Below are positions 19,246-37,661 of a stretch of DNA of 64,000 bases, piece by piece. The DNA is taken from positions 324,051 to 388,050 of the forward strand of contig MU001508.1 of the NCBI GenBank assembly GCA_010093485.1, written 5' to 3'. The notes beneath the pieces are model-generated. The model was given only the letters and a program-made list of their open reading frames with translations, did not search any database and had not been told where the DNA came from. Positions within the stretch are counted from its first letter, which is position 1, and every line of letters begins with the position of its first letter. The position numbers and the translations under genes are program-made. The DNA comes from Karstenula rhodostoma CBS 690.94. Taxonomy: Eukaryota; Ascomycota; Dothideomycetes; Pleosporales; Didymosphaeriaceae.

Positions 19246-20584
19246 ATGGACCGATTTGAGGAGTTACTTTCGCTGGCCACTCAGAGAGGCTCCAACGGAG
19301 TGCCTGGGGCAGCAGCGGCCGTGGTGGATAAGACTGGTACGTTTGACTGTCATGCGTCCCTTCAAAGATGAAGGATAAGCTTTGAAAGAACTGAACCACG
19401 CAACGCTGACCCATTGCCGCAGGCAACATCATATACAAGCATGTAGCCGGATCCAACGGCGCAAAGGAGGACGCGGCCGATCTCAGCTCCGACCAAGTGT
19501 ATTGGATAGCGTCGTGCACGAAGCTTGTGGCCTCTATTGCGGCACTGCAATGCGTGGAACGCGGCCTAATCACGCTCGACGAAAGTCTCGGCGTGCAACT
19601 GCCAGAACTTGCATCGCTGCCTATCATCGCCGCAAGTGGAGGAAAAGAATTCTTCGAGCTGCGCAATGCCACTAATCCCATCACACTTCGCCAACTATTG
19701 ACGCATTCGAGCGGCGTGGTCTACGATTGGCTTAGTCCCACGCTGTCCATGTGGCGTAGTTCACGTGGAGAAACCGCGCAACTCCCATGCACAGGCCGTA
19801 TCGACGAGGTCTCGTATCCCCGGATTGCCGAGGCTGGAGAGGTGTGGAACTATGGTAGGTTGAAATCAACACGTAAATTTTACAAAGATGTTTTCATTGA
19901 CCCTGACTCTACTCAGGCACGAATCTCGACTGGGCGAGCTTGCTCGTCGAACGACTGGCAAAAACTCCATTCGAAGACTACGTCACTCGAAACATTGCTG
20001 AGCCGCTGGGCATCAGGTCTTGGACGTGGCACCTTTCCCGCAAACCCGAGGTAGCGGAGAAGCTGATGCAGATGAGCGAGCGGAAACCAGATGGTTCACT
20101 CGCTCCAAGCAAGACGCCTATATGGGAAGAGCCCGAAGCTGAGCGCGGCGGCGCTGGAATGTACTCCACCATCGATGACTACATGCGCATCTTAGCGGAC
20201 ACACTCAAGGAGTCTCCCGTGACTCTCAAGAAAGAGGCCATGGACCTGATGTTCACGCCACAGTTCGAGGAAGGCAGCAAGCTGCAGAAGTCGATGTGGG
20301 ACATCGCGTGCGCACCCGTGGTAGGACTCAGTATGGAGGGCGTATCTCCCAATCAAGGACTTGGTGGGTTCTTGACCACTCATGACATCGACCGAGAGGA
20401 TTTCTATAAGCCCAAAGGTACTCTTGGGTGGCATGGGATGGCGAACCTTGCCTGGAACGCGAATCGCGAGAAGGGCCTAGCGTACTTCTTTGCAACGCAG
20501 GTTATCCCTTGGGGTGACGAGAAGAGCCAAGCGTTGATCAAAGAGTTCGAGGCCGCGGTGTGGAAGGCGTACACGCAGACTTGA
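19246..20584 (+). CDS. Beta-lactamase-fold serine hydrolase/acyltransferase (LovD/EstB-like)
   Basis: This enzyme belongs to the class C beta-lactamase-like family (PF00144), which includes EstB esterases and the LovD acyltransferase. Three exons: 19246-19336, 19423-19854 and 19917-20584 give about 396 residues. The catalytic Ser-x-x-Lys is S61-CT-K64 in YWIASCTKLVAS. The second-motif tyrosine lies in GEVWNYGTNLDWA (near residue 173), matching the Tyr position of LovD-type enzymes. ITLRQLLTHSSGVVYDW and ERGGAGMYSTIDDYMRIL are also family patterns. No signal peptide is seen, so it is probably cytosolic. Physiological substrate unknown. LovD-like proteins often transfer acyl groups in polyketide pathways, but no polyketide synthase is in this window. 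Confidence 0.88.
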
Positions 20585-21288
20585 ATCACAGCGCCAGGAC
20601 AGAAGTTTGAGTACAGGGTATTACCCGGAGGCAATATGTAAGTCAATTATACTCAGACCTTTGTGTTAGTATTGTACTCAATCCTTGCTTGTAATATTGG
20701 ATTCTGTATCTTCAACCTCGGACATATCTTGCCCAATTGTATAACATCCTCAAGCCGATTCACTCAATGTCAACTTCGCTGTGGTTGACCTGGAGGCTCC
20801 TGGTGATATATTTCAAACAAAATTTGTGGGGAACTTAGTAATGGGCGACTGCGAAACAGCGCTCCACATCGGCACTGTCGTCAAGTGGCGTGTACCCACG
20901 CACAACTGCTCGCACCTCCGCCACTACCCGTCGCTACAGGAGTACATGCCACCCGCCATGTGCATCCTCCCTCATCTGACGTGTCAATGTACATGGCACA
21001 TCTGATTGTTCTTGTTTGCAGAGGCTTTTTCGTTTCCACGCAGATCGAGCTTGCTCGTTCAGGGCAGTGTATACACCGCGAAGGCATTTGAGGAAGATTG
21101 AGGGCGTGCGTCATTGCAGTAGATATGTAGCGCCTTCCTAATTCGGCTACCCCTCACTACCCGCATGTGTCGTGCATCTATTTGACAATGCCGTCCACCA
21201 TCAACATCATCGCATGTGTGTATAAAGCTCCGCGTTGTCGTCTCATGTACCTTTAGCCCATCTGAACTTGTTTCCAGCAACACTCAAG
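20585..21288. other. Intergenic region
   Basis: This separates the hydrolase from the PLP enzyme and presumably holds the latter's promoter. Nothing else is recognised. Confidence 0.4.
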
Positions 21289-22682
21289 ATGTCCAAATCA
21301 TTCGACGTTGCCGCTGCCCGCGAGCGCTTCCCCGCACTGAAGCAGGACCAGGTGTTCCTTGACAATGCGGGCGGAAGTCAGACACTGGACAGTGTAATTG
21401 ATTCCATAACGCAGTATCTGTCCAAGACCAATGTGCAGTTGGGTGCTTCGTACCACACAGGCAAGTAGAAGTTGCATAGACATAGTAGGAGAAATACAAC
21501 TGATAGGATAGCGCAGGCAAGATCTCCAACACCAAATACGAAGAGGGCTACCAAGCCGCCGCAAAGTACATCAACGCCGGGCGCGACGAGATCGTGCTCG
21601 GCGGCTCCACCACGCAGCTCTTCATGAATCTTTCCTCGGCGATGAAGATCCCCGAAGGCTCGGAGATCATCCTATCGAAGATGGAACACGAGACGAACGT
21701 CAAGCCCTGGCTAGTCATGGCGGACCGCCTGAAGCTTACCGTCAAGTGGTGGGAGTCGCCGAAGCCGGAGCTGAAGCTCACGCCCGAAAACCTCAAGCCC
21801 CTGCTCTCCCCGAAGGTGAAGTTCGTCGCCTGCACTCACGTGAGCAATATTCTCGGGGGGATCCACGATGGTACGATACTCCCCGGTACAAAATCGCTAT
21901 GTCTTAGACATGGACACTTCGTACATAACCCCACTTTTGTGACTCAACTGACTTTGTACCCGCGAGGATAGTCAAGGCGATTGCGGACGCGGTGCATGAA
22001 GCTGGGGCGTTGTTCTGCGTGGACGGGGTGAGCTTTGCACCTCACCGGAAGGTCGACGTAAAAGCATTCGGCGTCGACTTCTACGCGTTCTCGTGGTACA
22101 AGGTGAGCCAACCTTCTACACAGGCCGTATTCTCTCTGCATGCAAGCTGACCCGGCCCAGGTCTACGGCCCCCACATCGCGGTCCTGTACGCTAGCAACA
22201 CCGCCCAAGAACACGTCAAGCCCCTCCCGCACTACTTCAACCCCACCAAAACCCTGGAAGACAAACTCGCCTTCGCCGCTTCCAACTACGAGAACGTGCA
22301 GTCGATCCCCAGGGTCGTCGACTACCTAGCAGACAAGAGCGATGTCATCGCCGCGCACGAGGGCAAACTGCAAACCATCCTGCTCGACTTTCTCAACTCG
22401 CGAGACGACATCACTGTCCTTGGGTCTACATCGGCAGACTCGGCTGTCAGGGTGCCGACCATCTCGTTTGTGGTAGACGGCAGGAACTCCAAGGAGGTTG
22501 TGGAGCAGGCGGACAAGATCAGCAATTTTGGAATCAGGTGGGGCCACTTTTACTCCAAGAGACTGTGCGATGAGGTGTTGGGGCTGGCGCCCGAGGGTGT
22601 GGTGCGCGTGAGTATGGTGCACTACAACACCGAGGACGAGATACGGGAGCTTGTCGAGGTGTTTAAGAAGATTCTGTCTTGA
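21289..22682 (+). CDS. Class V aminotransferase / cysteine-desulfurase-like PLP enzyme
   Basis: This is a fold-type I PLP enzyme of the class V aminotransferase superfamily, close to cysteine-desulfurase-like and isopenicillin-N-epimerase-like proteins. Four exons: 21289-21460, 21517-21870, 21972-22102 and 22161-22682 give about 392 residues. Visible features: FLDNAGGSQ near the start, ASYHTG, HETNVKPW, ACTHVSNILGGIHD, the FCVDGVSFAPHR motif with the PLP-contacting Asp, and K219 in FYAFSWYK, the expected Schiff-base lysine. GVVRVSMVHYNTEDEI closes the C-terminal domain. The first intron is GC-AG (donor AG/GCAAGT). The second is one of two related 101-base introns in the window. The reaction cannot be fixed from sequence; no catalytic-loop cysteine typical of desulfurases was identified. 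Confidence 0.87.
21871..21971 (+). mobile_element. Introner-like intron, copy A
   Basis: This is intron 2 of the class V aminotransferase gene, 101 bases, phase 1, GTACGA donor and GATAG acceptor with a CTGAC branch-like site. Aligned by hand without gaps, it matches the only intron of the Zn2Cys6 gene at 37285-37385 at 86 of 101 positions. The host genes are unrelated, so the intron itself appears to have multiplied. A short palindrome (ATGTCT/AGACAT, 21899-21911) is kept in both copies. Confidence 0.8.
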
Positions 22683-25600
22683 AGTGCAACAGCGGCGCAG
22701 GATAGAATAGAGAATGAACGTGCGGTGCAGTGACAATGGCACGAAGGGGCCTTCTGTGTTGCAATGCTCTGTGCCATATTCGGTAGGTCATGCATAGCAT
22801 AGCATTTCGATTACTCCTGCGTAGCTGCGGGGCATCAGTGGTAAGAGACAGACGTACCAGAGGACGATGGCGTCTAACAATCAACGACAGGCTAACAGCA
22901 GATACACCGCGTCAGTAGGTGGCTTTCGCTGAGGTGGTCGCATGTGATAAACCGAGCTCGGGGACCAGTGCTATAGCTAAACTCGATCGAGAAGGTGCTG
23001 TTCTTTGTTACAACGGCCCATGCGGCCTCGGATTGGGGGACGCTTTAACAGGTAGGTTCTCACGTGGACTGCAGCTTCTACAAAGTACCGGCATCGCCGG
23101 CATCGTCCGACTAACTGTATTCGCGAGCGTGGATGCGGACACATGGGCTGACGGCCGGTAATATGGCGGTACAGAGAGCTCACAGTACCCTTCTTCGATG
23201 CTTTTTGCTCGACGTGATTGTGCTGTTGTCGTAGTCTTCACCCCTCGTACCCTTAATTCGATCCGATTTCATCTATCAGCGTGCAATGTGGGTCTAATTG
23301 TTGTGGATTTCTTAGTCCTGTACGAGCTGTCCATCGTCTCGCCTGGTGCTTGTTAGAGAGCCAAAGGTGATGTTAACGAATGCGATTATGGTCGATTTGG
23401 CAGTGGCATGCCCCTCAGGCCGAAGCATCTAGACTGACAAGTTCGAACATGGGTTGAGCTGGAGTGACAGTGGGCAACACTCCAGCGAGCGGGGAAGGAT
23501 GAGGTGCCATGACATTCGAGCAACCAAGCAATGGTTGTCGGCTTCAGGAAGCGCAGCCAATCATGCGCTGGGGTTGGCCTCGTCAGAAATGCAGGCCCAA
23601 AGCTCCACCTTGGAGCGCATAGGATTCTGAAGTCGATCAGCTCTAGAACGGCCCTTGACGGGTCCCACGGGTGACATAGCGGGTAGGACCCTGCGTCCAT
23701 CTCCAGAGTTTGGCCCAAACAGCCTTCGCGGAGAACATGCCCAGCCAACGATACGCGTCTGCGTTTCGCAGTGATCAGCAGCGGGGTAAGCTTACAAATG
23801 TCCCGACAAGCTGATAGGACGGCCTTGCAAAGTTGCAGGTACCGTGTACTCATCCTGCGGCACAGGCACGGCAAAGAAGGCTGAGCGTCATCAGAGCGAG
23901 GTCTGCGTCTCGTCTGCGAAGAAGGCAGAAACGCTCTGCACACGCATTTCCAAAGCTAAATAGTATCTTGTTCACCATGTCGTCCCGTGCTGTCGTCTAG
24001 ACGGTGGTGTTTCAATAACGTTAGTTTCCACATGCGAAAAGACGTTTACCAAACTCAATTATGCATGCGGTGACATGCCCCGCGAAACGTGGACCCATGG
24101 TTACAGGCACCCGGGAGGTTCAGGAGACTGGTTCGCCCCTCTTTGCAAGGAACCATCTACTTGTAATAAAAGGCTACTCGAAGGCTTCATAAACCTAGAC
24201 GTGCTAGCCTCCCGAACCTTCTGGGTGGCTGCACAGCTGCGAACAGGGTCAGCCAAGAAAACAACCTGGGCGTTTTTGCTGGTAGCTCGAGAGACACGGC
24301 GGCGGAGGAGGGCATTTACTCTGAATAGATCCATCAGAGGTTTTTTTGAGTCATTGTGCTGAACGCTGTGTAGTCGCAGTAAGTGCGGTTGTGTACACAA
24401 TGTTGCACATGTCCTGCTGTCTGCCCATGAGGCCAGAATGCGGCCAGCTTAGAAATGCCCAACCGCCTCAGGGTCTGTAACGCAGCCGCCCGCTTCCGCC
24501 TAAGCGCAACCACAAGGTCCTGAACCACAGTATGGTTGGGGTTCGGAAGCTATCCGCCTTCAGTTCGTCGTGTGGCCTTGGAAAGGTGACGTCACGACGA
24601 AGGTGTGCACGGTTGCTCATGGGAAAGCCTGCTTCGCGACCGAGTGATCGTCATGGGCAAATTGTCAATTCCATCATCCCACAACGTCAACCGGCATGAG
24701 CATGGCGCATTTCCGGCACGGTGGGTCCGTTACATGTGGAAGGATGCTTTCACCGATGAAAACTAAGCGCTTCGTGATAGGTACCTGATTATCAGACCAG
24801 ATCCCGGCAACCGGCAAAAGAAGGAATTTCGCGCACGCTGACAGAGCTCGCGCAATTGGGAGACGCATGGGCGGGAATCAACCATTCTGCGGACGAATTC
24901 TTTCGAGGCTAAAGCTGGGTCCGTGTTCGCAGAAGACATGTTGTGGGAACAAGTAGGCTCGAGTTGGACGGAAACGGAAAAGCAATGCTGAGATGTGGTT
25001 AACCGCGGCGTGGCCCAGGTGTTTGTGAGGGGGGAATAGGGACCACCCCAGATTTTCGGGGATATGGCTCGGAGCTGCTCTACGGGCGACGTCATGGCGC
25101 AGATGGACGCTTTGTTGGGTTCCTGGGCTAAGGGCACTCGGGCTACTGTCTTCGTAAAAGTGGATGCAGGCAAGTCGCGAAGGCCGTCAGTCGGGGCTCC
25201 AGAAGGTCCGGAACGTGCTCAGCTGGCGATGGTCGCCATGCATACAGACGTCTGAAGCGCCACTTGCACGGGTAGCGTTGTTTAGGAGACGGGCTTGGGG
25301 TGGCTGCGTTCAGGGCGACGCGACGAGGGCGGTTGTAAGGGTCATTGGGGCTTGCATCGGTGCAAGCTCGAGACGCAAAGAGGCCCGGCGCCGACTGCCG
25401 TGAAGCCAAGGTGCGCAGGGGCTCGGTGGAGGAGAGGCGAGAGGCGCTTTGGAGAGACGCTTTGGAGAGGCGGGCAACGTGACCTCGCGCGCGCGCCGCA
25501 CCGGCCCGTTTGGGTCGCCTGGTTTGGCACGGCCAAACGATAAAACCATGGACGCCGACCGCAGCGTGTTAGAGGGCGACCTAGGCGGTAGTGCCGAGGC

Positions 25601-26288
25601 GTGTGGGGTTGGCGTGCCTGGATGTTGCTGTGATGCGAGACGCGCGCTGCATGGTGGTGTGACTTGCGACAGCCCTAGCAGCAGCGCAAAGCGGCGACGA
25701 GGCCGTCCAGCAGCACCGGCGACGCGACCGCGCAGGACGGGTGTGGCAGCGAGGGCGACGAGGGCGGTGGCGAGAGCGAGAGCGAGAGCGAGCGTGTTGG
25801 CGGCGCTGGCACTACAAGCGGGCGGGCGGTAGCAGTAGAGTAGAGAGCTTCGGGGCATGCGCGCCATCGCGATCGTAAAGTCGCTTCGGCCGGCGGGTCG
25901 GTCTGGCGCGTCCTCGCATCACCGATCGCTCGCGGCGTTGCTGATCTTGCCAGCAGATGGCATTTCAAGTTGGCCATGATGGATTTTCTCCCATTGCCAG
26001 CCGATTGCCATCTCCCGCCCGGTCGGTCCCCCCTCCCAACGCCTTTTATAGCTCCTCTGCCCACCGTGTCCCTCCTCCGCTCTCTGCCGCTTTGATTCTC
26101 CTCCACGTCCTCGCTACCGTTTTCGTCTGCTTGCCACCCATTCCAGCGGCGCATGCTTCGGTACACTTGGCCGCCGCCTGCTATAACTGCTCCCTACCCT
26201 GGCAGCATCCGCATTCCACATTGACACGCACCTTACCCCTACGCCTGTCTCACTGTCAACCTACCTACCACCAGCTATCACCACCGCA
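22683..26288. other. Long region without recognised genes (about 3.6 kb)
   Basis: I see no frame here with convincing domain content or splice structure. Several open stretches exist but have the odd Arg/Ser/Pro-rich composition of chance frames in GC-rich DNA. The last part (about 26,045-26,288) is C/T-rich leader sequence of the ATF-type gene. It may hold lineage-specific or noncoding genes that I cannot detect. Confidence 0.4.
26044..26050 (+). promoter_or_regulatory. TATA-like element upstream of ATF-type gene
   Basis: TTTTATA lies about 240 bases before the start codon at 26289 and is followed by a long pyrimidine-rich tract, an arrangement often seen at fungal transcription starts. If transcription starts just downstream, the ATG at 25957 would be excluded from the mRNA. 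Confidence 0.3.
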
Positions 26289-27272
26289 ATGCAGGTCGAA
26301 GCGACCATGCACCACGGCTTCGGCGAGCCCTCGTGGGCCAATGACGCCTACCTTGCGCTCGACAACGCCGGCGCCTCGTCGTCCGACAAGTGGACCGCTG
26401 CTCTCAGCAACCCACCCTCCTTCTCGCAGTCCGCCTTCACCATCCCCCCCTCTCTGCTTACCGCTGCTGCTGTTGAGCGCTATGGCCAAGTCACTCCCCC
26501 CGAAGACCTGTCTCCCGCGGAGCCACCACGCGAGCCGCTTCGTGACGCCTCCATTCCACTCGAGGAGCTTCAGAACGAGGCTCTCTTCCCGGGTCATCAG
26601 ATGCAAGCACTGCAGGATTTCCAGCCCCAACCAGCACAAGACGAACCCGCTCCGAAGCGCCGTCGTACCTCGCGCCACTCTTCAGCCAAGAACCAGCTGC
26701 CCCAACAAGACGGCCAGCCACCGAAGCGCAAGCGAGGAAGGCCGAAGTCGACCCCGCAGATGGTGGAGCACTATACTGCCGACGGCTTTCCATTCCAGGT
26801 TTCGTCGGCACGCCAATCGCATCTCGAGAAGAACCGCGTAGCCGCCCACAAGTGCAGGCAACGCAAGAAGGAATACATCAACGGTCTCGAGGCGCGTGCC
26901 CGCGAGTTTTCTTCCAAGAACAAGGCGCTCAAGGAAAACGTCGCCATGCTTCGCGAGGAAGTCCTGTCGCTCAAGAACGAAGTTTTGCGACACGCTGGCT
27001 GTGGTTTCTGGGCCGTCGACGAGTACCTCGCGCGATGTGCCGGCGACCTCTTGGGCGTCGACGCATCCAGAATGGGAGACCAGCACGCGAACAGGCCAAA
27101 GCCTAGCCCCATGACCAGCTCCTCGTCACTCCATCTGGACGATGTGCACCGTCGCCCGTCCAGCTCCGGCTCGATACTCAGTGCCATTTCTTCGCCAGAC
27201 ATCGACGACGACTATAGCGGTCTCGACTTCCTCCACGACATCGACGAGGACGAAGCGGAAGTATCCATGTGA
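26289..27272 (+). CDS. ATF/CREB-type bZIP transcription factor
   Basis: This single-exon gene encodes a 327-residue nuclear regulator. A Ser/Pro-rich N-terminal half carries two basic clusters (PKRRRTSRHSS and PPKRKRGRPKS, about residues 120-155) that could act as nuclear localisation or AT-hook-like signals. The bZIP domain (about 175-240) has the basic region SHLEKNRVAAHKCRQRKKEYINGLEAR, with the Asn-x-x-Ala-Ala-x-x-Cys-Arg pattern of ATF/CREB factors. Leucine-spaced heptads follow, then HAGCGFWAVDEYLA, which resembles the segment after the zipper in fungal Atf1/AtfA-like proteins. The C-terminus is acidic. Relatives govern stress, conidiation and nutrient responses; the orthology here is not settled. 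The start is the first ATG after the leader. Confidence 0.85.
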   Translation: MQVEATMHHGFGEPSWANDAYLALDNAGASSSDKWTAALSNPPSFSQSAFTIPPSLLTAAAVERYGQVTPPEDLSPAEPPREPLRDASIPLEELQNEALFPGHQMQALQDFQPQPAQDEPAPKRRRTSRHSSAKNQLPQQDGQPPKRKRGRPKSTPQMVEHYTADGFPFQVSSARQSHLEKNRVAAHKCRQRKKEYINGLEARAREFSSKNKALKENVAMLREEVLSLKNEVLRHAGCGFWAVDEYLARCAGDLLGVDASRMGDQHANRPKPSPMTSSSSLHLDDVHRRPSSSGSILSAISSPDIDDDYSGLDFLHDIDEDEAEVSM

Positions 27273-27895
27273 GGGAGGCTTTTGTGCCTGCTTCTTGCCG
27301 TTCTTCTTCAGCGAAACATGCTGCTTTGCCCGTCCACGTCTTCACGAATTATGATACCCGAACACTTGTTCAAAAGTTTCTTCTACCCTGTACAAGTTCT
27401 CTCATCTTGTATTACTTCATTATGGTGCTGTTAGCTCGGAGGATTCGTTTGCTCATGGAGCACGCTTGTACAAGCCACTGTCGCAGAATCCACGCGGAAC
27501 GTCGCGGCTAAGGAGGATGTGGTTGATTTGGCCATGGAAAAAAACATTCAAACTCAAGAAAGAAGATACATCAGCCGTCTGCCCACTGTCTCGCAGAGTC
27601 AGGTTACTCGAGTTGCCAAATCGAACAAGTTGACTTCGCAACCTCCGCGCTCTAGATACCCATTGTCGCTGTAGTGATGTTGCAAACTTTGCAAGCATGC
27701 TTATCCGATGTCCGCAAAAGTTGGTGCGTCTAATCATTGTCACTGTCGATTGCTTTCACATCCACAAGAATCAATTCACAACGCCCAAATTCCAACAGTG
27801 ACTCTTGACAACCATTGTTCCGAGATGGTGTTGCCCCTATACAGTACGAGATGAACATCCGTGGCGGCGGGTACTGTAGCGCTTCCCCGCCTCGA
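27273..27895. other. Intergenic region
   Basis: This is the 3' flank of the ATF-type gene. No gene is recognised before the relic that begins at 27896. Confidence 0.35.
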
Positions 27896-28352
27896 CTAAA
27901 CGTAATAGGCCATCCGTATGCGGTTGACGTTATCCAAGATCCCACAGAACGTCGCAAACGGCAGGCATGCATGCTGCTCAAAATTCTGCATCCACTCATA
28001 CTCCTGCGCCACGTCGAGAAGAGTACCTAGGTATGCATCGTGAACGTCGAGGGGGGAGACATCGAGCCGCAACCGATAGAAAAACGGTCGGAAGAAGTGC
28101 TGCATGGGGTGGGCGAAACTTCTGCCACCAAGGATGCGGTTGCGGCGAGATGCGTAGAGGCGTTAGGGAAAGATACAGTTCGCTCCTTGTGTGTCGGGTT
28201 GGAGCGCATACGAATCGGGCACGTCGGCCTCCGAGATATCTTTGGGCAGCGTCGTGCGTCTTTTTAGAAATCATTGGGTGGGAATAACCGTCGGTCCATA
28301 GTACAACAACTAGGTCCTTCGCTCAGGTTCGGCGAGATAGGGTACCGTACTC
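27896..28352 (-). pseudogene. Nonsense-interrupted relic of unknown gene
   Basis: On the minus strand one frame runs about 152 codons with protein-like composition but is broken by three in-frame stops. Its segments read VPYLAEPERRT, LLYYGPTVIPTQ, FLKRRTTLPKDISEADVPDSYALQPDTQGANCIFP and, after the last break, a 105-residue part containing MQHFFRPFFYRLRLDVSPLD and YEWMQNFEQHACLPFATF. I do not recognise the family. C-to-T changes at Gln or Arg codons could produce such stops, as repeat-induced point mutation does. Chance openness cannot be excluded. The inverted-repeat element lies about 360 bases away. Confidence 0.35.
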
Positions 28353-28706
28353 TTTTTGACAAGTAACTACCTAGTCCACCACATCCACCACGCTTCGAAA
28401 TGGTACGCTGCTGCGCAAGCCGATGCGGGAGCGCCCTGTACATGATTGTTAAGCAGAGTACGCGTTCAGTCCCTCGGCAGTTGCCAGTTGTACGGTGCTG
28501 TGTGCGGGTCGATGGGGCTTCGGTGGCGAACATGGCCCACAGGGAACGCGGACGGTACAGGCGCAGCGGTTGCTGGGTGTGACGGAGAACGGCGCGGCAA
28601 GAGAACTCAAATACAAGGCACCCGTGCTCCACAGCACAGTTTGACAAATGCTGGGGAGTGTGAAGGTTTGAACGATCGTGTCGTATGCGCGATGACGTCA
28701 GGATAC
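28353..28706. other. Flank between relic and MITE
   Basis: No recognised gene. The minus-strand relic may extend into this stretch, but composition gives no clear boundary. Confidence 0.3.
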
Positions 28707-28708
28707 TA

Positions 28709-28958
28709 CTGTGGTTGCAGCCATAAGTCAACGCAGTGGGTCTTCCAGAGCAAGGATATGTAATATATTAATTTTAAAAAAATTATTTAAAGAAGAAAGG
28801 GCTTAGCTTTTTTGAAAAGAAGCTTAGTTTTTTTAAGAAAGCGCCTAGCTCTTTTAAGTAGATTTAGATCTTCTTAAGTAAGTATTAAATCTCGCTAGGT
28901 AGCTTCTATATTCGGGCTAAGAAAGCCCCACTGCGTTGACTTACGGCTGCAACCACAG
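28709..28958. mobile_element. TA-flanked inverted-repeat element (MITE, Tc1/mariner-like)
   Basis: This 250-base element has terminal inverted repeats of 32 bases (28709-28740 and 28927-28958) that differ at one position. The repeats start CTGTGGTTGCAGCC. TA dinucleotides flank both ends (28707-28708 and 28959-28960), as expected for a TA target-site duplication by Tc1/mariner/pogo transposases. The interior is A/T-rich, with repeated CTTAG/CTAG-type words and runs of A or T, and no coding frame. It is therefore a non-autonomous miniature element, perhaps altered by C-to-T mutation inside while the ends stayed intact. No autonomous partner is in the window. Confidence 0.8.
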
Positions 28959-28960
28959 TA

Positions 28961-29766
28961 AACTCATGGTAGCTCTTTTCCTCTCGCGTCGATTGTTGGC
29001 TACATGTTCGCTGCTCGATATCAACAGCTCGGAGCGTTGTCTAGACACGAGATACCAATGACCAGAGTCACTGCCACTGAACCATCCAACACTGCGAGGC
29101 CCAAGCTGGGGCGAAACGCGTCTGGACGCCGACGATGGTTGCTAGGTTGTCTCCACGTCCACTTTTAGAATGGAGCTGAAGTAACGGACTCAAAAAAGCG
29201 GCAACATGGACAGATTCGAGCATGAATTCCAGGAACGAGTACTAGGTGGCGAATCTAGGGTCGCGAGTACAGGTCGCTGGAGATCACATGTATGCCTCTT
29301 CGGCCCTAGCGGCAATGGCGAGTAGTCCGCGCCTTCTCATAGGCTGGGGTACTTTGCCGCCCACTGACGTGGGCCCTGCCTCTGATAGCGAAGCCGCAAC
29401 CTCAAGTGAGACTGTATCATATCGCTACTCGAGGGCAGTCGCAGTACGAATCTTGTCCAAAATTCATGTCGCAATCAGCGCAGAGACGCTCGATCCTTTA
29501 CTCTACTAAAAATTCTAGCCGCGCTCTGTGCAACCGCAACAGAAGAATTGGAAAGGGAGCTGGAGCTCTGCGACGTTGCTTCACACTCGCACCTCGCCCG
29601 GTGTTTGCAGACCCAACGCCCAACGCGCGCACCGCTCAAGCCCGTTCAGCCTAACAGTCTGGCGGAGATCCCACGCTCCAGGTCTCAACCTCAGGTCTTA
29701 CTAGTGAGCCCGCGCGGCCTAGTCGGTCATTCCTCCGTTGATTCGGATAGCTGAGTACGGGCTTCG
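28961..29766. other. Upstream region of Zn2Cys6 gene
   Basis: No convincing gene is present. This presumably holds the promoter of the Zn2Cys6 factor starting at 29767. Confidence 0.4.
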
Positions 29767-32682
29767 ATGGAGAAGCTTGCCACCGCGGGTGCGCCAAAGG
29801 TCGCAATACCCCGAATATCGTCCCGAGAACCACCCGGTGAAAAAGATGATCAGCGGACGTCGCGCGTGAGGCGAGCTGTAAGTGCTGTGTACTATTACTA
29901 TCCGTGGCGACGTTTCTGTGCTAACCTTTACAGTGCCTTGGCTGCAGGAGGCGGAGTAAGTCGTTGCCTGAGGATACTCAACCACGCTGACAGTTCTGAA
30001 CGATTACAGAGGTCAAATGCACTGGTGACACGCCAAGCTGCGCTAATTGTATCGCAAACAAGTTGCAATGTGTGTACGACCAAGCCCGTCGTGACAAGCT
30101 TAAATCAGCTACGAGCAAGAATAAGGATCTTGTTTTGCTGCTGAAGGAACTCAGTCTGCGACCAAGTCTCGACGCCGACGATAGAGCCCGTATTCAGGAT
30201 GCTCTCGAAACATTCGAAGAGGATTCCATGTCAGCTGTCTCTGTCATATCTATGAAGAGAAGGAAACTATCGGTACATGAGGAGCTGGAGGAAGAGGACG
30301 ACGGACCTCCTTCAATCGGGTCAGACGAAGGATTGGCTATCTTGGACGAAGACCTTCTGCGCAGCCGCAAATCACGGTCAACTGGCTACGTGGGTCAGGG
30401 CGCTGGGGTTCAATGGTTACGCTCCCTACAGGATACACTCAAAACGGAGGGGCCTGACCAACAGACTGTCTCGGGCAACAGCGATGTGGACGAGTGGTCT
30501 TCTGCACAAAATTCTGGTTTATCTTCTTCAGTCACAGACGCCTCCTTTTACCTTGATGCCGACAGCGCCGAGTTGGACGTGGATGTTGATCCTTACGAGC
30601 TACCTCCGAAGGAAACCGCTTTCAAACTCTTCGAGTGTTACAGGCAAACTGTCCACACGTCATTCCCTGTCCTGCCACCTCAATTCGAAGACCAATTTCG
30701 ACGCTACTTTGAAACCGTAAAGCCAGAACGTCCGTTCACGGTTCCGGAAAGATGGTTGGCCATCTTGAACATCGTTTTCGCCATAGGCGCGCGATATTCG
30801 CACTTGATCAACGCCGAGTGGCAAGGAGAGGACCGGGATCACCTAATCTACATGACGAGGAGCGTTCGTTTGTTGGGCTCTTGGCCATTCGCTGCTGCGC
30901 CAGATTTGGCCTTGATACAGGTGGTAGGTTCGACAGTCATCAGTAGGCTCTCCACAAGAGTCGCACTCTTCAATGACATCAATTCGGACATTCATTGCTA
31001 ACGATAAACAGTCTGGCTTGTTAGCTTTCTACTATCAGGTTATCGGGCATGTCAGCAGAGGGTGGGTGATGATCGGTATTTCTATTCGCCTAGCTCTGGC
31101 TCTCGGTCTCCACCTGCGCAACGAGGATCCGAATATACCACCTAGCAAGAAGGAAACCATCCTACGTACTTGGTGGACCCTCCATGCCATCGAGTGCCAA
31201 CTAAGTGCTATCACAGGGCGACCTTGCGTTCTTAGCCATGAAGACTGCACGGTCGCACTGCCCATGGCTTTGTCTGAAGAAACACCTGGCCCTAACAGAT
31301 CTATCGACTCCACTCTACCTACTTGGGACAAGGAAACTTCGCCCACGCCGGCCAGTGGTAGTAAGTTGGAGAACGACCGCAGACTACAAACTCCACGATC
31401 GTACTTGGACGCGCATCTGAACATCGGCCTCATCATACAGAAGCTGTTATCTGCGCTATACTCTCCCCGTACCGCTCCGTACACGTGGGCGCACGTTCAG
31501 ATTACCATACCCAAGTTACTCCAGGAGTTGGACGACTGGAAACAAGGCGCGTTACCGGACAAAGATCTTCTTCATTCACAATCGTTTGCACAACCCGAGA
31601 GCCCGCGCGAAAGCCTCTTGCTTCGCTTCTACTACTTCAGCGCCAAGATTCTGATGACGCGACCGTGTCTGTGTCGTTCTGGACGAAAGACCAAAGATCA
31701 GGGTGATGCTTCCGTGATATTCGATCAACAAACAGCAGAAACTTGCGTGAAAGCCGCACTTGGCCTGGCTGGATTGCTGCCCGTTTCTGACCCCCAATCC
31801 TTGTACGAGAATGGTCCTTGGTGGTCGATCGTTCACATCAGTGAGTATTAGTTCTCTTGTGAATTGCTCTGGGTTACAATGCCTGGAATAGAAGTTTGAG
31901 TATACTGTGTTACCTCACGAGGAGCAATGCAGTAATAAAATATCTAGCCTAGTACTGTGCTGACCAAACAAATAGTTATGCAAGCGATGGCAGTCTTGCT
32001 CTTAGAACTATCCTATGAGATGGATAATATGCAAGGTGATCGATCAGATGTCAAAGGCAGCGTGAGAAAGATGATGCATTGGCTCGGTGCGATGCGTCAC
32101 ACTGATGCCGTTGTGGAGCGAGCACACAAAGTCGTCATCAGGATCCTGCAGCAACCAAAATTCAAGGCCATATTCAGCGAGCTTTTGGCCGAAGACAATC
32201 TTGCACATGAACTGATTCACCATGGTGCATTCAATTACGGGCATTCTCACCCGGAACCAACCGCTTACCCGCCCAGCGGAAGCTTGCCTCAAATGCCGCC
32301 GACTGAGTGGTATGGTGGCCCCTTCGCAGCCAATACCCAACGCAAGAGTGGAGACTTCAACCCGGCGGCAACGGATTCTCAACTGCTCGCAGGCCTAGGA
32401 CAATCCCAGGCACAGCAGCAGCTTCTGAACCAGATGCCATCTCAGGCCGAGCAGTATCAATATCTTGAAACCCCTTACAACAACAATTTCATGTTCTCGA
32501 ACCCGTTCATGACCAGCTACGATCAGGACGCACCGTTTGGGATGATTCCGGAGGATCTGTGGCCGAGACCTGGGGCTTCAGGGGATGGAGGCCTCGCCGC
32601 CGAGCAGCATGACGTCGGTCATCCAAACTACCCGTACATGATGGATGAAAACCCATCGGATGACCCACCTCAGCCGCAGTGA
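29767..32682 (+). CDS. Zn2Cys6 transcription factor with fungal-specific TF domain
   Basis: Five exons: 29767-29877, 29934-29955, 30010-30923, 31012-31840 and 31976-32682 encode about 860 residues. Joining exons 1-3 rebuilds a binuclear zinc cluster, C38-LG-C41-RRRKVK-C48-TGDTPS-C55-AN-C58-IANKLQ-C65, after the basic RTSRVRRA. Exon 2 is only 22 bases. The middle homology region (PF04082-like) includes SFPVLPPQFEDQF and LLAFYYQVIGHVSRGWVMIGISIRLALALGLH, then RTWWTLHAIECQLSAITGRPC. The tail is Gln/Pro-rich with an MMDENPSDDPPQPQ end. It should bind DNA in the nucleus as a pathway or nutrient regulator; targets are unknown. All intron phases close, which supports the model. Confidence 0.87.
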
Positions 32683-33392
32683 TTTGCTACGACCTGGATT
32701 CCCAGCTGGAGAACATCACCAGTCGATCAGGAGTATACCTCGGGGTTTTTGATGAGATAATGTGAGTGCTAGAGCTAATATCAAAACGGGTAATAAACGC
32801 TCCATTATAAGAAGCGGAATTTAACACCTTATGCTATGAATTAGTATAGCAAGTTCACAATAACAATCAACATGAATTTAATCAATCATACCTGTCGACT
32901 CGCACCGACATGACACGTATAGCTGAAGAAGCAGATGGTGGAATGCAAACGGGGAACGCGTGTCCAATCACCATATACTTTGCGGCTAATAGCATCATCC
33001 ATTAGACGATCCGAATGACTAACTTGCAAGATCTGGCTTAGTCCGACACGTAGCGAGCTGCAGGTGCTTACATTTGTTTTCAAAGTAGTCTGATAGGGTG
33101 CAGTTGAGGTAGCTTTAGATGGAGTTATGGGTTGAAGAGAGGAAGCTAGGAACTATGCTCGCACGATTATCTCGAGGAAGGATCTGATAGTACAGCTCGC
33201 TGGTGTTAGTGGCATGACGAAGAGAAATGTTAATGAGGCACCCACCTATGATTATGCACTAGAGTCCTCCAGGCGAACTAGATATCGAATGTGTATTAGG
33301 TATGTAAACCAACTGCATCCCTTGTGAAAGTACCAAGTGCAGAAACAAGTACCCGCACAAGAAGACCTATCCCCAAAATCTTACAGCTCCAC
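32683..33392. other. Convergent intergenic region
   Basis: This lies between two convergent genes and is partly A/T-rich around 32,800-32,900. No gene is seen. Confidence 0.4.
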
Positions 33393-34320
33393 TCAACCCA
33401 CATACTCAACAACCAACCTCAACCTCCCCCTGGCACAGACGTTCTTCCTCACCCACACAATCAACGGCATGAACACCACCTCCCTCCGACTCCCCATGGA
33501 CCTCGCCACCGCCTCCCCCTCCCAACACACCAGCGTGACGCTCTCCAACGCCTCGCAGTCAATCAAGCAACACAAATCCATCTCCTCAACGACCTCCTTC
33601 TTCAAACGCATCCGGGGAACGCACATGTCCGTGTACCCGGACCCTTTCTCCTCATCCATAGCCCACTCCGTCCTCACGCACACGGTAGGAGGGACCCCGA
33701 TCTTCACGTGGCGCAGGGCGGGGCACGCAGCGAGCAGCGCCTTGGTGGTGTGTGTGAGGTGCGGGCGCCAGGATATGGCGGGGGAGAAGACAAGGGTGTG
33801 GACGGTGGGCAGGGAGAGGACGCGGGTGGGAGGGCTGAGGTAGTGCGTGAGGCGTTGCACGGCCAGGACGTTGGGGAGGACGAGCTCGGTGTCGAGGAAG
33901 ACGCGGGGCGTGCATTCTGCGTGGATCTTGCGGTTTGCGTAGCAGAGGCTTGGGAGGGGGCCGGGGAGCGAGACGAGGCTGGTGGGTTGGAGGGAGTCGA
34001 CGTGGAGCTGGGGTGGGACTGTGAGGGCGAGGTAGTAAGCGTAGATGGTGTGCTGCGTTGCGTGTGAGTTTAGCGCGATATGCAAAACCGGATTTACGTA
34101 CTCGGATCTTCCGTGGTAGGTTAAGGAACTGGAACACGGCTCGTGGTCTTGGGGGTTCGGGTAGGACTTTTTTCTGGATGCGCTGCATGTTGCACTGGAG
34201 GCTCATGGCACTAACTCGCATTATGCCTTTCTGGCGCTCGATGCGAGGCTTGATAGACAGTGTTGTGGAAGACTCGGTCGTAAGATTGGTACGTCGACGA
34301 GAGAATATATTGGCAACCAT
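33393..34320 (-). CDS. Hypothetical 2EXR/F-box-like protein
   Basis: Two exons, 34320-34102 and 34052-33393, joined in phase 0 over a 49-base intron, give about 292 residues. The join reads FQFLNLPRKIRHTIYAYYLAL, the leucine/proline/arginine pattern of the short N-terminal module (2EXR or F-box-like) of many lineage-expanded fungal proteins. The second half carries PTVHTLVFSPAISWRPHLTHTTKALLAACPALRHVKIGV, resembling leucine-rich-repeat-like strands that often follow. Function unknown; such proteins are guessed to be ubiquitin-ligase adaptors, which is not shown here. Confidence 0.6.
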
Positions 34321-34525
34321 AATGTAATGATAGTAGAGCGGATTCTCCAGTTCGAGGTTGCTGCACTCTCAAGTACGATATCGAGGGTACACTCACAACA
34401 TGGATGTGTCGAAGAGTATATACAGAAGGCTTTCACGTTGTCTTGGGGTATAGAGTATTTATTGCAATATCCTATGTGAATCATCAGCATAACCAACAGA
34501 GGTGTACTCAACATTCACATATATC

Positions 34526-35230
34526 TCAAGCCTGTGCTACCCCCCATGCCTGACCTTCCCCTCGCCGTTCAAACTCCAAGATATCTTCGGTGAATTTGAA
34601 CAGCTCCTTACCACCAACCAATTCAGTGATCCAAAGACTCGCATCGATCCCCGAACTAACCCCCCCAGCGTTTACAATCCTCACACCAGCCTCCGTCTCC
34701 CCGCCATCCACCCACCTCTTCTTCACAATGTTAATTCTAGAATCCCCGCCTGCAGCTTTATCCGCATACTTCTTGAGCATATCATAGCAGATATGATGCG
34801 TCGTCGCCGTCCGCCCAGCCAACACACCCGCCGCACCCAAGATAATAGACCCGGAGCACACAGACTGCAAGATCCGATACCCGGTCTCTTTCCTCGGCGG
34901 CAACTCCGCGAACCTCTGCAAAAGCGCCAGCGTCTTCTGTCCATGCTCGCTGGCCACGAACTCCGCAACGATTTCCGGGTGCGCGCCGGGGACGACGAGG
35001 ATGTCGTAGTTTTGGAGCTGCTGTTCGACGTCCGCAAACGAGGCGCCGGGGACGTAGACCAGGACGCTTTTCTCGCCGCCGACGGGGTTTGTGTGTGCGA
35101 AGGTTTTGACGGAGAAGACCTGCGGTGTGCCTGGGGGTGGGCGCGTGGAGTAGACTTCTACGGGCCCGCTGAAGTCCATGATGTCGGCGCCTGCGTAGAT
35201 GAACACGCCGACGTTGAGTGCGGGTGCCAT
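34526..35230 (-). CDS. DJ-1/PfpI (class I amidotransferase-like) family protein
   Basis: This single-exon gene encodes 234 residues. NVGVFIYAGADIMDFSGPVEVYS at the N-terminus and YDILVVPGAHPEIV are the first strands of the DJ-1/PfpI fold. The nucleophile-elbow cysteine is C125 in ILQSVCSGSIILGAAGVLAGR, followed by TTHH, the usual arrangement of ThiJ/PfpI proteins. RIVNAGGVSSGIDASLWITEL is the C-terminal family motif. Members include glyoxalase III-like enzymes, isonitrile hydratases and stress proteins; I cannot tell which applies. It is probably cytosolic. Two Zn2Cys6 genes flank it within 6 kb. Confidence 0.87.
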   Translation of the reverse strand: MAPALNVGVFIYAGADIMDFSGPVEVYSTRPPPGTPQVFSVKTFAHTNPVGGEKSVLVYVPGASFADVEQQLQNYDILVVPGAHPEIVAEFVASEHGQKTLALLQRFAELPPRKETGYRILQSVCSGSIILGAAGVLAGRTATTHHICYDMLKKYADKAAGGDSRINIVKKRWVDGGETEAGVRIVNAGGVSSGIDASLWITELVGGKELFKFTEDILEFERRGEGQAWGVAQA

Positions 35231-35883
35231 TGCAGGGTATGAATGCAGTCAGGGCTACGCGACGGAGATTGGTTTTCTGTCTTGTATTTCTTTGCGAACT
35301 ACATTTGAATCCGTGGTTATTAATGATCCAGGAAATCGGCTCGGATGGTAGCCGGGTCGCCGTTCCGGTGTGAGCTAGGCATAAGCGGGACCTGTTGAAC
35401 TCGATGTGAAACCTTTCACCACTCACTCCGCTTCCGAAGATGGTAGCACCGATGACCGCCTATGGGGCTGTTATTTTATCCTAAAAGTGGGTTCATATGT
35501 CACAAAAACATGCCTAGCTGACAGGTCAAAGATGAACGTGGTAAAAAATCCACAAAAAAGCAAATGCAGCGGTGATTCCAATCGTAGGCCCGTTCCCTTG
35601 CTGCTTTGGAAGGCGTCCGCAACGCATGGTACGTACATACCTACTGGTAAACCCGGTTTGAACTATGAAGTAGCCTCACGCGCACATGGTGTGTCCGTAT
35701 ACGTTTGGTACTTCCAAATCCAAGCATGCTTCGTGAACTATCCTGTGTGACACCCTAGACAACCCAGGCGCACACAGTTTGCACTGTTGAATGCTCGCTA
35801 AACCTCTATAGGCCAACTAAAGCTCGGACAGAATACAGCAGGGAATGTAGACACGTCTTCAACGCTTCGTCATAGTACACAGG
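35231..35883. other. Intergenic region
   Basis: This holds the promoter side of the DJ-1/PfpI gene and the 3' flank of the second Zn2Cys6 gene. No gene is recognised. Confidence 0.4.
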
Positions 35884-37661
35884 CTACGGTCCAAAGCTCT
35901 CCATGGCGCGATGCTCTTGGTCCAGCTTTGCAATAGCTAACCACCCAATGCCTCTCAACGAACCGACTTTCCAATCCTCAAACACCATTCTAGCAAGACT
36001 CCTTTGTTCCAAAGTCGGCGCATACATAGCGACAAGAAACAGCGGCGAATGGAGCCGAAGATACGCAAAGCCAGTATCGCGGAGCCTCAAGTACCAAGAT
36101 ACTGAAAGTATGAGCGCGTAGTGGTCAGTCATAGAAGGTGGTAGAAATGAGGGATCGAGATGCGTGGAAGGTGGAGATGAGCTCGGTGGTGTATCAGGCG
36201 AGTGCCATGTCGGGCTCACGTTACTGGAAGAGGAGGAGGTGGGTGATGTCGATTTCGATCTCTGAGACGGCATGAAGGGAAGTGATGCCGTTGAATGCGC
36301 GGCAAGTGCATCATAGGTGGGCGCCAGCAGATCGAGGAGTATGTGGCAGGCGCTGAAGTACGCGTATGTCAGGCTCGTGAAAGGATCTCTGAAGTCGGTG
36401 TGGCCTGTCCCGGGACTGGTCCAACACAGTCGTTGTCCTTTGCTTTGTTGTGCATAACCGTTCCATAATTGGTTGACCTCTTCTCTTGCTTTCATGTATT
36501 CTTTCCTCTTGCGCTCGAAATCCACGGGTGACATCACCGCGCTTGAATTCGACTGGAGCTCCATTAGTCTGGCCAAGGGCGTAATGATCTGCATGCTGAG
36601 TGGCAGCCTTTCCTGCGTCCAACCGCAAGCTTCTAGAAGCACGCGTTTCATGACTGGATCGTCGCGGATTCGAGGATTGGACGTAGTGAGGTACACGAAA
36701 CATAGCTGTAGCCTTACATGGAAGAAGATGTTGATGAGCATAGGTCCAGGTCCATTTCCTCCAGGTCCTTTTGCTTTCTTGTCTCTCTGTGCTTTCGATG
36801 CCTGCTCCAGTGCATTGTCAATCATTTTTGCACAGGCAACGTTGTGCAATGCGAACCCCTCCCCAGCACTCGCTACTACCGACTCGAACAAGGTCAACAT
36901 CAGACTTGTCATGACCATGTACAGGTCTCCGCCTTTATCTCCTTTCTCTTGTAGTACTCTTCCCTGACAACGCAAGCTACCACCGTACAGTCCGTACGCA
37001 TGATGCAGTAGGGCAGCGTCCCTCAACTCTAAGCTACTAAAGGCTGCAGTTGTGGCTCGCAGGGCTAGACTCAGCGCTTCGTTCCTGTGGGTAGCCGATG
37101 AACTTTGTGATGTAGATGGAGGGAGTGCAGCAGCCATCCGCGGCAGCGCATGCAACCAGCTTGGTGTACGCCGAACTGCACCTGGCATATGTCTTCCTTC
37201 AGCACACATGAACGCGGTTAAGTTTTGAAAGAACGCCTCGCCCAAAACGTATCTGGGGCTGACGTCCACTTGCAAAACGTATGCCTATACTCGTGGGAAC
37301 AAAGTCAGCCGAGTTACAAAAATGGGGTTATGTACAAACTGTTCATGTCTGAGACATGGCGACATTGTACTGGGGAGTATCGTACCATCTCATCGGGGAG
37401 GGACCCAACGCCAACCGCTATGCCTCTGCCGTCCTCAAATCGTCGAGCGACTTCCAGAGAGGTGGCTTGAGGGGAGGGTTTCTTGGTTCGGGGCTTCTTT
37501 CCAGATGGATAAGAAGACGTGTCCACGAAAAGAAGGGGTGCATCGGTGGGACCCGGACATTGTCTGTTGAACCGTGTGCACATGGTGCAGTGTGGCATCG
37601 TAGCGTCACATTTTATACGCTTTTGGCGGCATGTCGCACATGCTTTAGTTCTGCGTGGCAT
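35884..37661 (-). CDS. Zn2Cys6 transcription factor
   Basis: Two exons, 37661-37386 and 37284-35884, are joined in phase 0 over a 101-base intron, giving about 558 residues. The zinc cluster is at the very N-terminus: C8-AT-C11-RQKRIK-C18-DATMPH-C25-TM-C28-TRFNRQ-C35. A basic linker (GKKPRTKKPS) follows. The remainder is a DUF3468-like helical region (GEAFFQNLTAFMCAEGRH, LSLALRATTAAFSSLELRDAALLHHAYGLYGGSL) of the type found in many fungal regulators, with a Ser/Pro/Thr insert around residues 430-465. Nuclear DNA-binding regulator; targets unknown. Its only intron is closely related to an intron of the class V aminotransferase gene 15 kb away. Confidence 0.85.
37285..37385 (-). mobile_element. 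Introner-like intron, copy B
   Basis: This is the single intron of the Zn2Cys6 gene, 101 bases, phase 0, donor GTACGA and acceptor TATAG. It is collinear over its full length with the intron at 21871-21971: 15 mismatches by hand count and no gaps. The shared palindrome is longer here (CATGTCT-C-AGACATG, 37344-37358). It sits on the opposite strand and in a different phase from copy A. Confidence 0.8.

What the first reader, a model, noticed from the sequence alone, without database searches (positions are those of the whole stretch)
21871..21971. Two near-identical 101-base introns in unrelated genes: introner-like elements
Intron 2 of the class V aminotransferase gene (21871-21971, plus) and the only intron of a Zn2Cys6 gene (37285-37385, minus) align end to end without gaps, with 15 mismatches by hand count (86 of 101 match). 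The splice sites, a CTGAC branch-like site and an inner palindrome are all included. The exons around them are unrelated, phases differ (1 and 0) and both are longer than most of the window's introns. The simplest reading is multiplication of a spliceosomal intron, as described for introner-like elements of Dothideomycetes. Two copies within 16 kb suggests many in the genome.
Basis: partly seen in the sequence, partly recalled or inferred. Interest (0 to 1): 0.9.

Follow-up and report, generated by a model that had tools for sequence, protein, structure and literature searches.

The report
Spreading intron family in a fungus
The two look-alike introns belong to a family of at least 85 copies of one small mobile intron that has spread, splice-ready, through unrelated genes of the fungus Karstenula rhodostoma; such families are known, but this one shows paired ends and a one-sided choice of landing site that bear on how new introns arise.

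Summary
Confirmed and extended. The two introns are 101 nt and match at 86 of 101 positions without gaps. The genome is Karstenula rhodostoma CBS 690.94 (Dothideomycetes, Pleosporales). At least 85 copies were found on 23 contigs, 41 of them strong; one pair is 101/101 identical in different genes. Most lie sense in coding exons (both flanks sense 60 of 83, both antisense 2). Homologous proteins support exact excision in both window genes. An unspliced frame from a relative, 97% identical and reading into the neighbouring intron 3, runs through the aminotransferase site, so that intron looks recently gained. A second, internally unrelated family (about 155 nt, 13 copies read) shares the terminal inverted-repeat design. 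No target-site duplication was detected. The 3' exon starts [G/T]CA far more often than at ordinary introns (CA at +2+3: 33 of 83 against 7 of 68). These are fungal introner-like elements: a new member of a known kind. RNA- or DNA-mediated mobility stays open; the one-sided target motif and the shared terminal module are the new clues.

The parts
21871..21971 (+). introner copy A (family 1, 101 nt), in a class V aminotransferase gene, phase 1
37285..37385 (-). introner copy B (family 1, 101 nt), in a Zn2Cys6 gene, phase 0
21876..21895 (+). copy A, 5' arm of near-terminal inverted repeat (element positions 6-25)
   Evidence: 18 of 20 positions pair in the family consensus; this copy has decayed pairs
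21950..21969 (+). copy A, 3' arm of near-terminal inverted repeat (element positions 80-99), ending 2 nt before the splice site
37361..37380 (-). copy B, 5' arm (element positions 6-25)
37287..37306 (-). copy B, 3' arm (element positions 80-99)
21886..21924 (+). copy A, inner palindrome (element positions 16-54)
   Evidence: (self-match on opposite strand)
37332..37370 (-). copy B, inner palindrome (element positions 16-54)
21948..21952 (+). copy A, CTGAC branch-like site (element positions 78-82), overlapping the 3' arm
   Evidence: C78, T79, G80, A81 invariant in 30 copies; substitution rate 0.026 per site against 0.112 elsewhere (69 copies)
37304..37308 (-). copy B, CTGAC branch-like site
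21972..21974 (+). copy A, target motif KCA at the start of the 3' exon (TCA)
37282..37284 (-). copy B, target motif KCA at the start of the 3' exon (GCA)
22103..22160 (+). ordinary intron 3 of the aminotransferase gene (58 nt), 131 nt downstream of copy A; relatives' unspliced ORFs read into it

Best explanation
The two introns are copies of a non-autonomous mobile intron, a fungal introner-like element. Its mobile unit coincides with a complete U2-type intron (GTACG...CTGAC...TATAG), so a landing in a coding exon in the sense direction makes a ready-to-splice intron and leaves the protein unchanged. Shown: a family of at least 85 copies graded from identical to decayed; exact excision in both window genes judged by homologous proteins; near-terminal inverted repeats starting at position 6 and ending 2 nt before the 3' end; a second internally unrelated family with the same terminal design; no detectable target-site duplication; a preference for [G/T]CA immediately 3' of the insertion point. 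Strongly inferred from protein records: gain at an unoccupied site in the aminotransferase gene. Inferred, about 50%: the excised intron RNA, its ends held together by the terminal stem, is the intermediate, and it (or its copy) is joined directly into genomic DNA at nicks or breaks before KCA in transcribed genes. Not shown: which enzyme joins it and what reads KCA.
For: Copies: 98 candidate places, of which 83 match the family model, plus 2 beside them = 85 at E<1e-3; 83 of 85 have GT..AG near the expected ends. Recent activity: L018 and L019 identical 101/101 in different genes. Sense coding: spliced frame open at least 50 codons on both sides in 51 of 83, against 18 of 83 antisense, 10 of 83 unspliced and 28% of random placements. 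Codon model: both flanks sense 60 of 83, both antisense 2, phase-concordant sense 48; in the 41 strong copies 31, 0 and 26. Pfam match runs across the spliced junction in 15 of 20 peptides tested, chosen from the 45 of 83 with the longest frames. Absence in relatives: 87 of 120 listed aminotransferase alignments end at or just past the border of intron 3; P0030 (97% identical) continues VSQLNIDNVNSLHNS where Karstenula's unspliced intron 3 reads VSQPSTQAVFSLHAS, yet passes the introner site unbroken. Terminal stem: RNA z-score -5.4 and -6.0 for young copies L002 and L018, +0.3 for ordinary intron 3. No TSD in 12 tests on 69 copies. For direct insertion into DNA rather than cDNA replacement: ordinary introns 131 nt (supported by homologues) and 17-67 nt (predicted) away survive.
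Against: No RNA-seq. Terminal inverted repeats are also a DNA-transposon mark, and the target motif would suit an integrase. Selection could hide antisense copies, though it should not remove intergenic ones; the intergenic share of the genome was not measured. The at-least-20-codon frame criterion is weak in this genome: sense 73 of 83, but antisense 51 of 83 and random placements 71%; among strong copies sense 35 and antisense 25 of 41. 35 of 83 copies are not phase-concordant sense by the codon model, and two (L041 C8:1546555, L051) score antisense on both flanks, concordantly. The covariation test within family 1 is negative: no compensatory change in 18 pairs over 29 distinct sequences, and all 500 shuffles reach the observed values. 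One palindromic copy (L067) lies outside any visible reading frame and lacks a GT start.
Confidence: 0.85

Rival explanations
1. The elements are non-autonomous DNA transposons (MITE-like) whose terminal inverted repeats are cut and pasted by a transposase encoded elsewhere, of a type that leaves no target duplication; splice sites sit at the very ends and only sense copies survive in genes.
For: 18 of 20 arm positions pair. Two internally unrelated families share the ends (GGTACAA.GT / CCC.CGAGT.TAG), as MITE families driven by one transposase do (recalled). A sequence preference on one side of the target. TIRs occur in 72 of 177 introner families in PMC9860276 (passage read).
Against: No target-site duplication detected. 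None of the 41 strong copies scores antisense on both flanks and 31 score sense on both; intergenic position was not excluded copy by copy. No longer element with these ends was seen: of the 54 hits of the 5' end pattern, 52 lie in copies of about 100 nt that also hold the 3' end and 2 in 5' partial copies; ends with more than 3 mismatches were not searched. The mobile unit equals the intron.
Confidence: 0.35
2. Reverse splicing of the intron into another mRNA, then reverse transcription and replacement of the gene by recombination with the cDNA.
For: Mostly sense coding position, exact boundaries, no target duplication.
Against: Replacement by cDNA should remove nearby introns, yet intron 3 survives 131 nt from copy A (supported by homologues), and predicted ordinary introns lie 17 to 67 nt from four other copies. 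The exon signature expected of spliceosomal choice is absent on the 5' side of young copies (-1 G in 26% of 27).
Confidence: 0.1
3. The two introns are similar because the host genes or their segments were duplicated, or by chance or gene conversion.
For: The two copies lie about 15 kb apart, and copies cluster along the genome (24 pairs within 50 kb against 7.9 expected).
Against: Flanking exons are unrelated and in different phases. Neighbouring copies are no more alike than distant ones (0.806 against 0.801 expected, p 0.42, 16 pairs). The family is spread over 23 contigs.
Confidence: 0.02
4. The [G/T]CA bias is not a target preference but reflects better splicing or survival of introners followed by KCA.
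For: +1 G is also favoured at ordinary introns (44% of 68). CA at +2+3 is about equally common in young, middle and old copies (10 of 27, 12 of 27, 11 of 29), so it does not fade with age.
Against: The C at +2 is already 70% in the youngest third and 48% in the oldest, opposite to a survival filter. 68 putative ordinary introns lack it (C at +2 24%, CA 10%).
Confidence: 0.2

Closest known systems
Introner-like elements (ILEs) of Dothideomycetes (van der Burgt 2012, recalled and cited through PMC4457414 and PMC8469720; Collemare 2015, PMC4457414)
   Same: Near-identical full-length U2 introns in unrelated genes of a Dothideomycete; several families in one genome; decay into ordinary introns; more than one per gene; stable predicted fold; seamless insertion.
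   Different: Found here in Pleosporales, Didymosphaeriaceae. About 100 copies found in two families instead of hundreds. Insertion favours |KCA rather than the AG/GY that PMC8469720 attributes to van der Burgt.
[quoted passage not shown]
   Same: Near-terminal complementary arms a few nt from the first G and about 2 nt from the acceptor; no target-site duplication; seamless insertion on the coding strand.
   Different: Here canonical introns, not twin introns. The arms are 20 nt and unlike GUAUAAAAAC in sequence, and the 3' arm overlaps the branch site. Those authors report no exon bias; here +2 and +3 are biased.
Introners of Gozashti et al. 2022 (PMC9860276) and the DNA-transposon introners of algae (Huff et al., cited there and in PMC12403724)
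   Same: Families of intron-generating elements; many carry terminal inverted repeats.
   Different: No target-site duplication and no co-opted splice site here. [quoted passage not shown] Their supplementary species list was not seen, so Karstenula may be in it.

Membership tests
fungal introner-like element | near-identical introns in many unrelated genes | tested here: met
   85 copies; genes of different families; one 101/101 identical pair
fungal introner-like element | functional spliceosomal intron (GT-AG, branch site, exact excision) | tested here: met
   83 of 85 with GT..AG; homologous proteins continuous across the junction; splicing itself not observed, no RNA-seq
fungal introner-like element | gain at a previously unoccupied position | tested here: met
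   unspliced ORF of a relative runs through the aminotransferase site while entering intron 3; inference from protein records for one site, since relatives' DNA is not held
fungal introner-like element | stable secondary structure in young copies | tested here: met
   z -5.4, -6.0, -3.6 for three young copies; -2.2 and -2.4 for the two window copies (six sequences folded)
fungal introner-like element | preference for AG/GY sites (as PMC8469720 attributes to van der Burgt) | tested here: not met
   -1 G in 36 of 83 (26% in the young third), 3' flank KCA instead; a reported tendency, not a defining feature
TSD-forming DNA-transposon introner | target-site duplication | tested here: not met
   12 tests on 69 copies, lowest p 0.063
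TSD-forming DNA-transposon introner | terminal inverted repeats | tested here: met
   18 of 20 arm positions pair in the consensus; 94.4% of cells pair against 28-45% when slid
TSD-forming DNA-transposon introner | autonomous partner with the same ends | tested here: inconclusive
   none seen with the end patterns at up to 3 mismatches; no full repeat annotation possible
[D1,2] stwintron | nested second intron splitting the donor between nucleotides 1 and 2 | tested here: not met
   removal of one GT..AG unit restores the protein; 5' exon base variable

The most novel reading that the evidence does not exclude
A dedicated insertion system recognises a terminal module (GGTACAA.GT arm plus its complement next to CGAGT.TAG), moves internally unrelated introns that carry it (families 1 and 2), and joins their 3' end to sites reading [G/T]CA without duplicating the target. 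It would be neither classical reverse splicing nor TSD-forming transposition, and its landing sites would be predictable.
Probability: 0.3. Interest if true: 0.8.

Novelty: new member of a known kind. Interest (0 to 1): 0.58.

Why it matters
How new spliceosomal introns arise is a long-standing question. This family gives a compact test case: recent copies, an identical pair, two families with the same ends and different interiors, an apparently empty site in a close relative, no detectable target duplication and a measurable one-sided target motif. The motif discriminates between models: random break repair predicts none, and spliceosomal reverse splicing predicts a signature on the 5' side. 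The inverted repeats also contradict the published summary that ascomycete introners have none.

Tried and rejected
Local hopping was rejected: copies cluster (24 pairs within 50 kb against 7.9 expected), but near pairs are no more alike than others. Target-site duplication, tested at the exon/intron ends and flanks for 3-8 nt: none detected. The idea that the first intron bases GTACG are one half of a duplication whose other half is KCAC fails, because +2 is C (50 of 83) where T is needed and T is not enriched (13 of 83). Covariation within family 1: none. Other repeats in the sampled loci show no shared GT..AG borders by eye and were set aside without further test. A scan of the sampled loci for GT..AG segments with near-terminal inverted repeats of at least 14 of 16 gave 16 candidates, all in the two families (shuffled control 1). 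A query with an old, divergent copy (L089) found only itself; L060 found three older places not in my list (C2:424469, C4:1167148, C13:1031042), not fetched and not counted in the 85. Rfam: no match in window 21000-38000. No relatives' DNA is held for this genome (header), so presence/absence rests on protein records. A first, stricter control set of 22 predicted ordinary introns gave CA at +2+3 in 3 of 22 (p 0.024); I relaxed the threshold to get 68. Of the 98 places, 15 gave no separate family-1 copy: 4 are family 2, 1 is the other half of the L067 palindrome, 10 look like chance.

Full report
The observation. Both have GT..AG ends, CTGAC and an inner palindrome. Phases are 1 and 0.

The organism. 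A protein search with the second exon of the Zn2Cys6 gene returned a 100% identical Karstenula rhodostoma CBS 690.94 protein on a contig of the same length as ours, 1,506,074 bases. This is a Dothideomycete of the order Pleosporales, family Didymosphaeriaceae.

The family. Searches of the 44.3 Mb genome with either copy and with three end or centre patterns gave 98 places. DNA of all of them was obtained (the window itself). A profile from 30 copies found 85 copies at E<1e-3: 83 of the 98 places plus 2 beside them, on 23 contigs. Among the 69 copies of 60 bits or more, divergence from the consensus runs from 1% to 31%, and L018 and L019 are identical over 101 bases in different genes. The searches report capped lists, and three further old places appeared, so 85 is a lower bound.

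They are introns. 83 of 85 have GT..AG within a few bases of the expected ends (the rule allows 5 nt at the start and 9 nt at the end, so it is weak for decayed copies). After removal the frame is open at least 50 codons on both sides in 51 of 83, against 18 of 83 on the antisense strand, 10 of 83 unspliced and 28% of random placements; the median of the shorter side is 62 codons against 24, 16 and 31. The laxer limit of 20 codons separates poorly (73 of 83 sense, 51 of 83 antisense, 71% random). With a codon model trained on the flanks (leave-one-out), both flanks are sense in 60 of 83 and antisense in 2; 48 are phase-concordant sense, and the two antisense ones (L041 C8:1546555, L051) are concordant too. 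In the 41 copies of 95 bits or more these numbers are 31, 0 and 26. Of 20 spliced peptides scanned, chosen from the 45 with the longest frames, 15 have a Pfam domain running across the junction, two of them (L057, L101) by only about 10 residues on one side; of the other 5, two have no hit, two hits miss the junction, and the hexokinase halves meet at it. The annotated Zn2Cys6 protein reads exactly across 37385/37285.

They are recent gains. All 120 listed aminotransferase homologues (of 350) align across the junction; 93 have no gap within 12 residues, and the ten printed of the 27 with a gap have it at HEA/G, away from the junction. 87 of the 120 alignments end between query residues 160 and 178, that is at or just past the intron 3 border; the first 45 were printed. 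P0030, 97% identical over the aligned part, continues VSQLNIDNVNSLHNS where Karstenula's unspliced intron 3 reads VSQPSTQAVFSLHAS. It is therefore, by inference, an unspliced genomic frame that still contains intron 3 and yet passes the introner site unbroken. The relatives' DNA is not held. For the Zn2Cys6 gene, 21 of the 24 listed proteins cover the site: 13 have no gap within 12 residues, and the 8 with a gap have it before the junction, none at it. For L002, 119 of the 120 listed homologues (of 2041) span the junction, none with a gap; many of these are bacterial or distant, so for presence/absence only the closest (P0145-P0148, 77-89%) count.

Anatomy. Positions 6-25 and 80-99 form near-terminal inverted repeats (18 of 20 pair; two C-C mismatches). 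The 5' arm starts at position 6 and the 3' arm ends 2 nt before the intron end. Over 29 distinct sequences 94.4% of cells pair, against 28-45% when slid by 1-3 columns, but there is no compensatory change and shuffling the letters does as well. Three young copies fold strongly (z -5.4, -6.0, -3.6), the two window copies less (-2.2, -2.4), and ordinary intron 3 not at all (+0.3). The branch-like site overlaps the 3' arm. The 5' arm can alternatively pair within the inner palindrome 16-54, so the two folds exclude each other; that this matters is speculation.

A second family. Pattern hits led to a family of about 155 nt (14 places, 12 of them read, plus one more in L057: 13 copies by profile). 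It begins GTAAGAAACCCCGGGGTACAAGTT and ends AACTTGTACCCCCGAGTTTAG, with its own inner hairpin. The family-1 profile matched it only weakly at one end (L084, positions 1-32, E 3.0). In all 13 the spliced sense frame is open at least 28 codons on both sides. Five gene regions hold two or three introners, always on one strand; in two of them (L016, L085) one member is a weak match of 18 bits.

How it inserts. No target duplication was found in 12 tests on the 69 copies of 60 bits or more (lowest p 0.063). The 3' exon is biased: +1 G/T 63 of 83, +2 C 50 of 83, +3 A 42 of 83 (p 2e-6, 7e-9, 3e-8). CA at +2+3 occurs in 33 of 83, against a rate of 7% in the flanking exons and 7 of 68 at predicted ordinary introns of the same loci (Fisher p 4e-5). 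Family 2 agrees with 5 of 13. The bias is present in the young, middle and old thirds (CA 10 of 27, 12 of 27, 11 of 29; +2 C 70% in the youngest) and in all three phases (9 of 15, 13 of 33, 8 of 25 of the 73 copies with a phase call). On the 5' side only -1 G is clearly enriched (36 of 83), as at ordinary introns (44%), and not in the young third (26%). Both window copies are followed by KCA (TCA, GCA). The ordinary introns are predictions of mine, not annotations; the first, stricter set (3 of 22, p 0.024) points the same way.

Placement. Pairs within 50 kb: 24 against 7.9 expected, or 19 against 7.3 after collapsing copies within 3 kb (uniform placement; gene density not modelled; six contig lengths were filled with their mean). 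Near pairs are not more alike (16 pairs, p 0.42), so this looks like regional preference, not local copying.

Mechanism. The mobile unit equals the intron, most copies are sense and exonic, and neighbouring introns 131 nt (supported by homologues) or 17-67 nt (predicted) away survive. This favours direct insertion of an intron-derived molecule into genomic DNA over cDNA replacement. Inverted repeats, shared ends of two families and a target motif would equally suit a transposase acting on the ends. I put the RNA-derived route at about 50% and the DNA transposon at about 35%.

Literature. PMC12403724 (abstract, discussion and passages read) describes near-terminal complementary elements and seamless insertion without exon bias in Xylariales stwintrons. 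PMC8469720 (abstract and first part of the discussion) describes symmetrical introns without target duplication. PMC9860276 (passages only) states that ascomycete introner families have no TIRs or TSDs. PMC4457414 (abstract, introduction, first part of results) describes ILEs in Dothideomycetes and genes with two of them. PMC11889510 (passages) concerns rDNA introns of Pleosporales. Searches with introner alone (67 papers, 40 listed), Karstenula with intron (3 listed, not opened), and introner with Alternaria, Didymosphaeriaceae or Pleosporales showed no title or abstract describing this family (open-licence papers only; the supplement of PMC9860276 was not seen).

Noticed in passing
L067 (C7:1510785-1510916): A head-to-head palindromic version of family 1 made of two diverged 3' halves, without a GT start and outside any visible reading frame; perhaps a snap-back copy or two insertions.
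   Followed up: partly
window 20574-20676, 31875-31958, 39328-39416: Three short repeats of about 85-105 bp, of two related types with inverted ends resembling TACAGT..ACTGTA, like Tc1/mariner-type MITEs (type name recalled); relatives at C22:320084, C17:454261, C19:217874, C7:1156911, C8:627293.
   Followed up: partly
L041 (C8:1546555-1547940): One gene region carries three family-1 introners on the same strand, two of them separated by 45 nt; the middle one lacks the usual TATAG end.
   Followed up: partly
L046 C13:1450705-1450816, L114 C4:1635482-1635593, L100 C27:57177-57297: An unrelated dispersed repeat of about 110-120 bp, 79-89% alike, with an inverted partial copy at C4:1635628; nature unknown.
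   Followed up: no
window 50320-50454 and 50675-50815: Internal repeats in Pro/Ser/Thr-rich frames on the minus strand (ORFs 49815-50825 and 50635-51810) of what looks like a cell-wall glycosidase gene (gene kind recalled, not searched).
   Followed up: no
P0002, P0003, P0006, P0007 (relatives of the Zn2Cys6 protein): Their records start at MPHC or MPTC, 21 residues into the Karstenula protein, suggesting an intron inside the zinc-cluster codons of relatives that Karstenula lacks.
   Followed up: no
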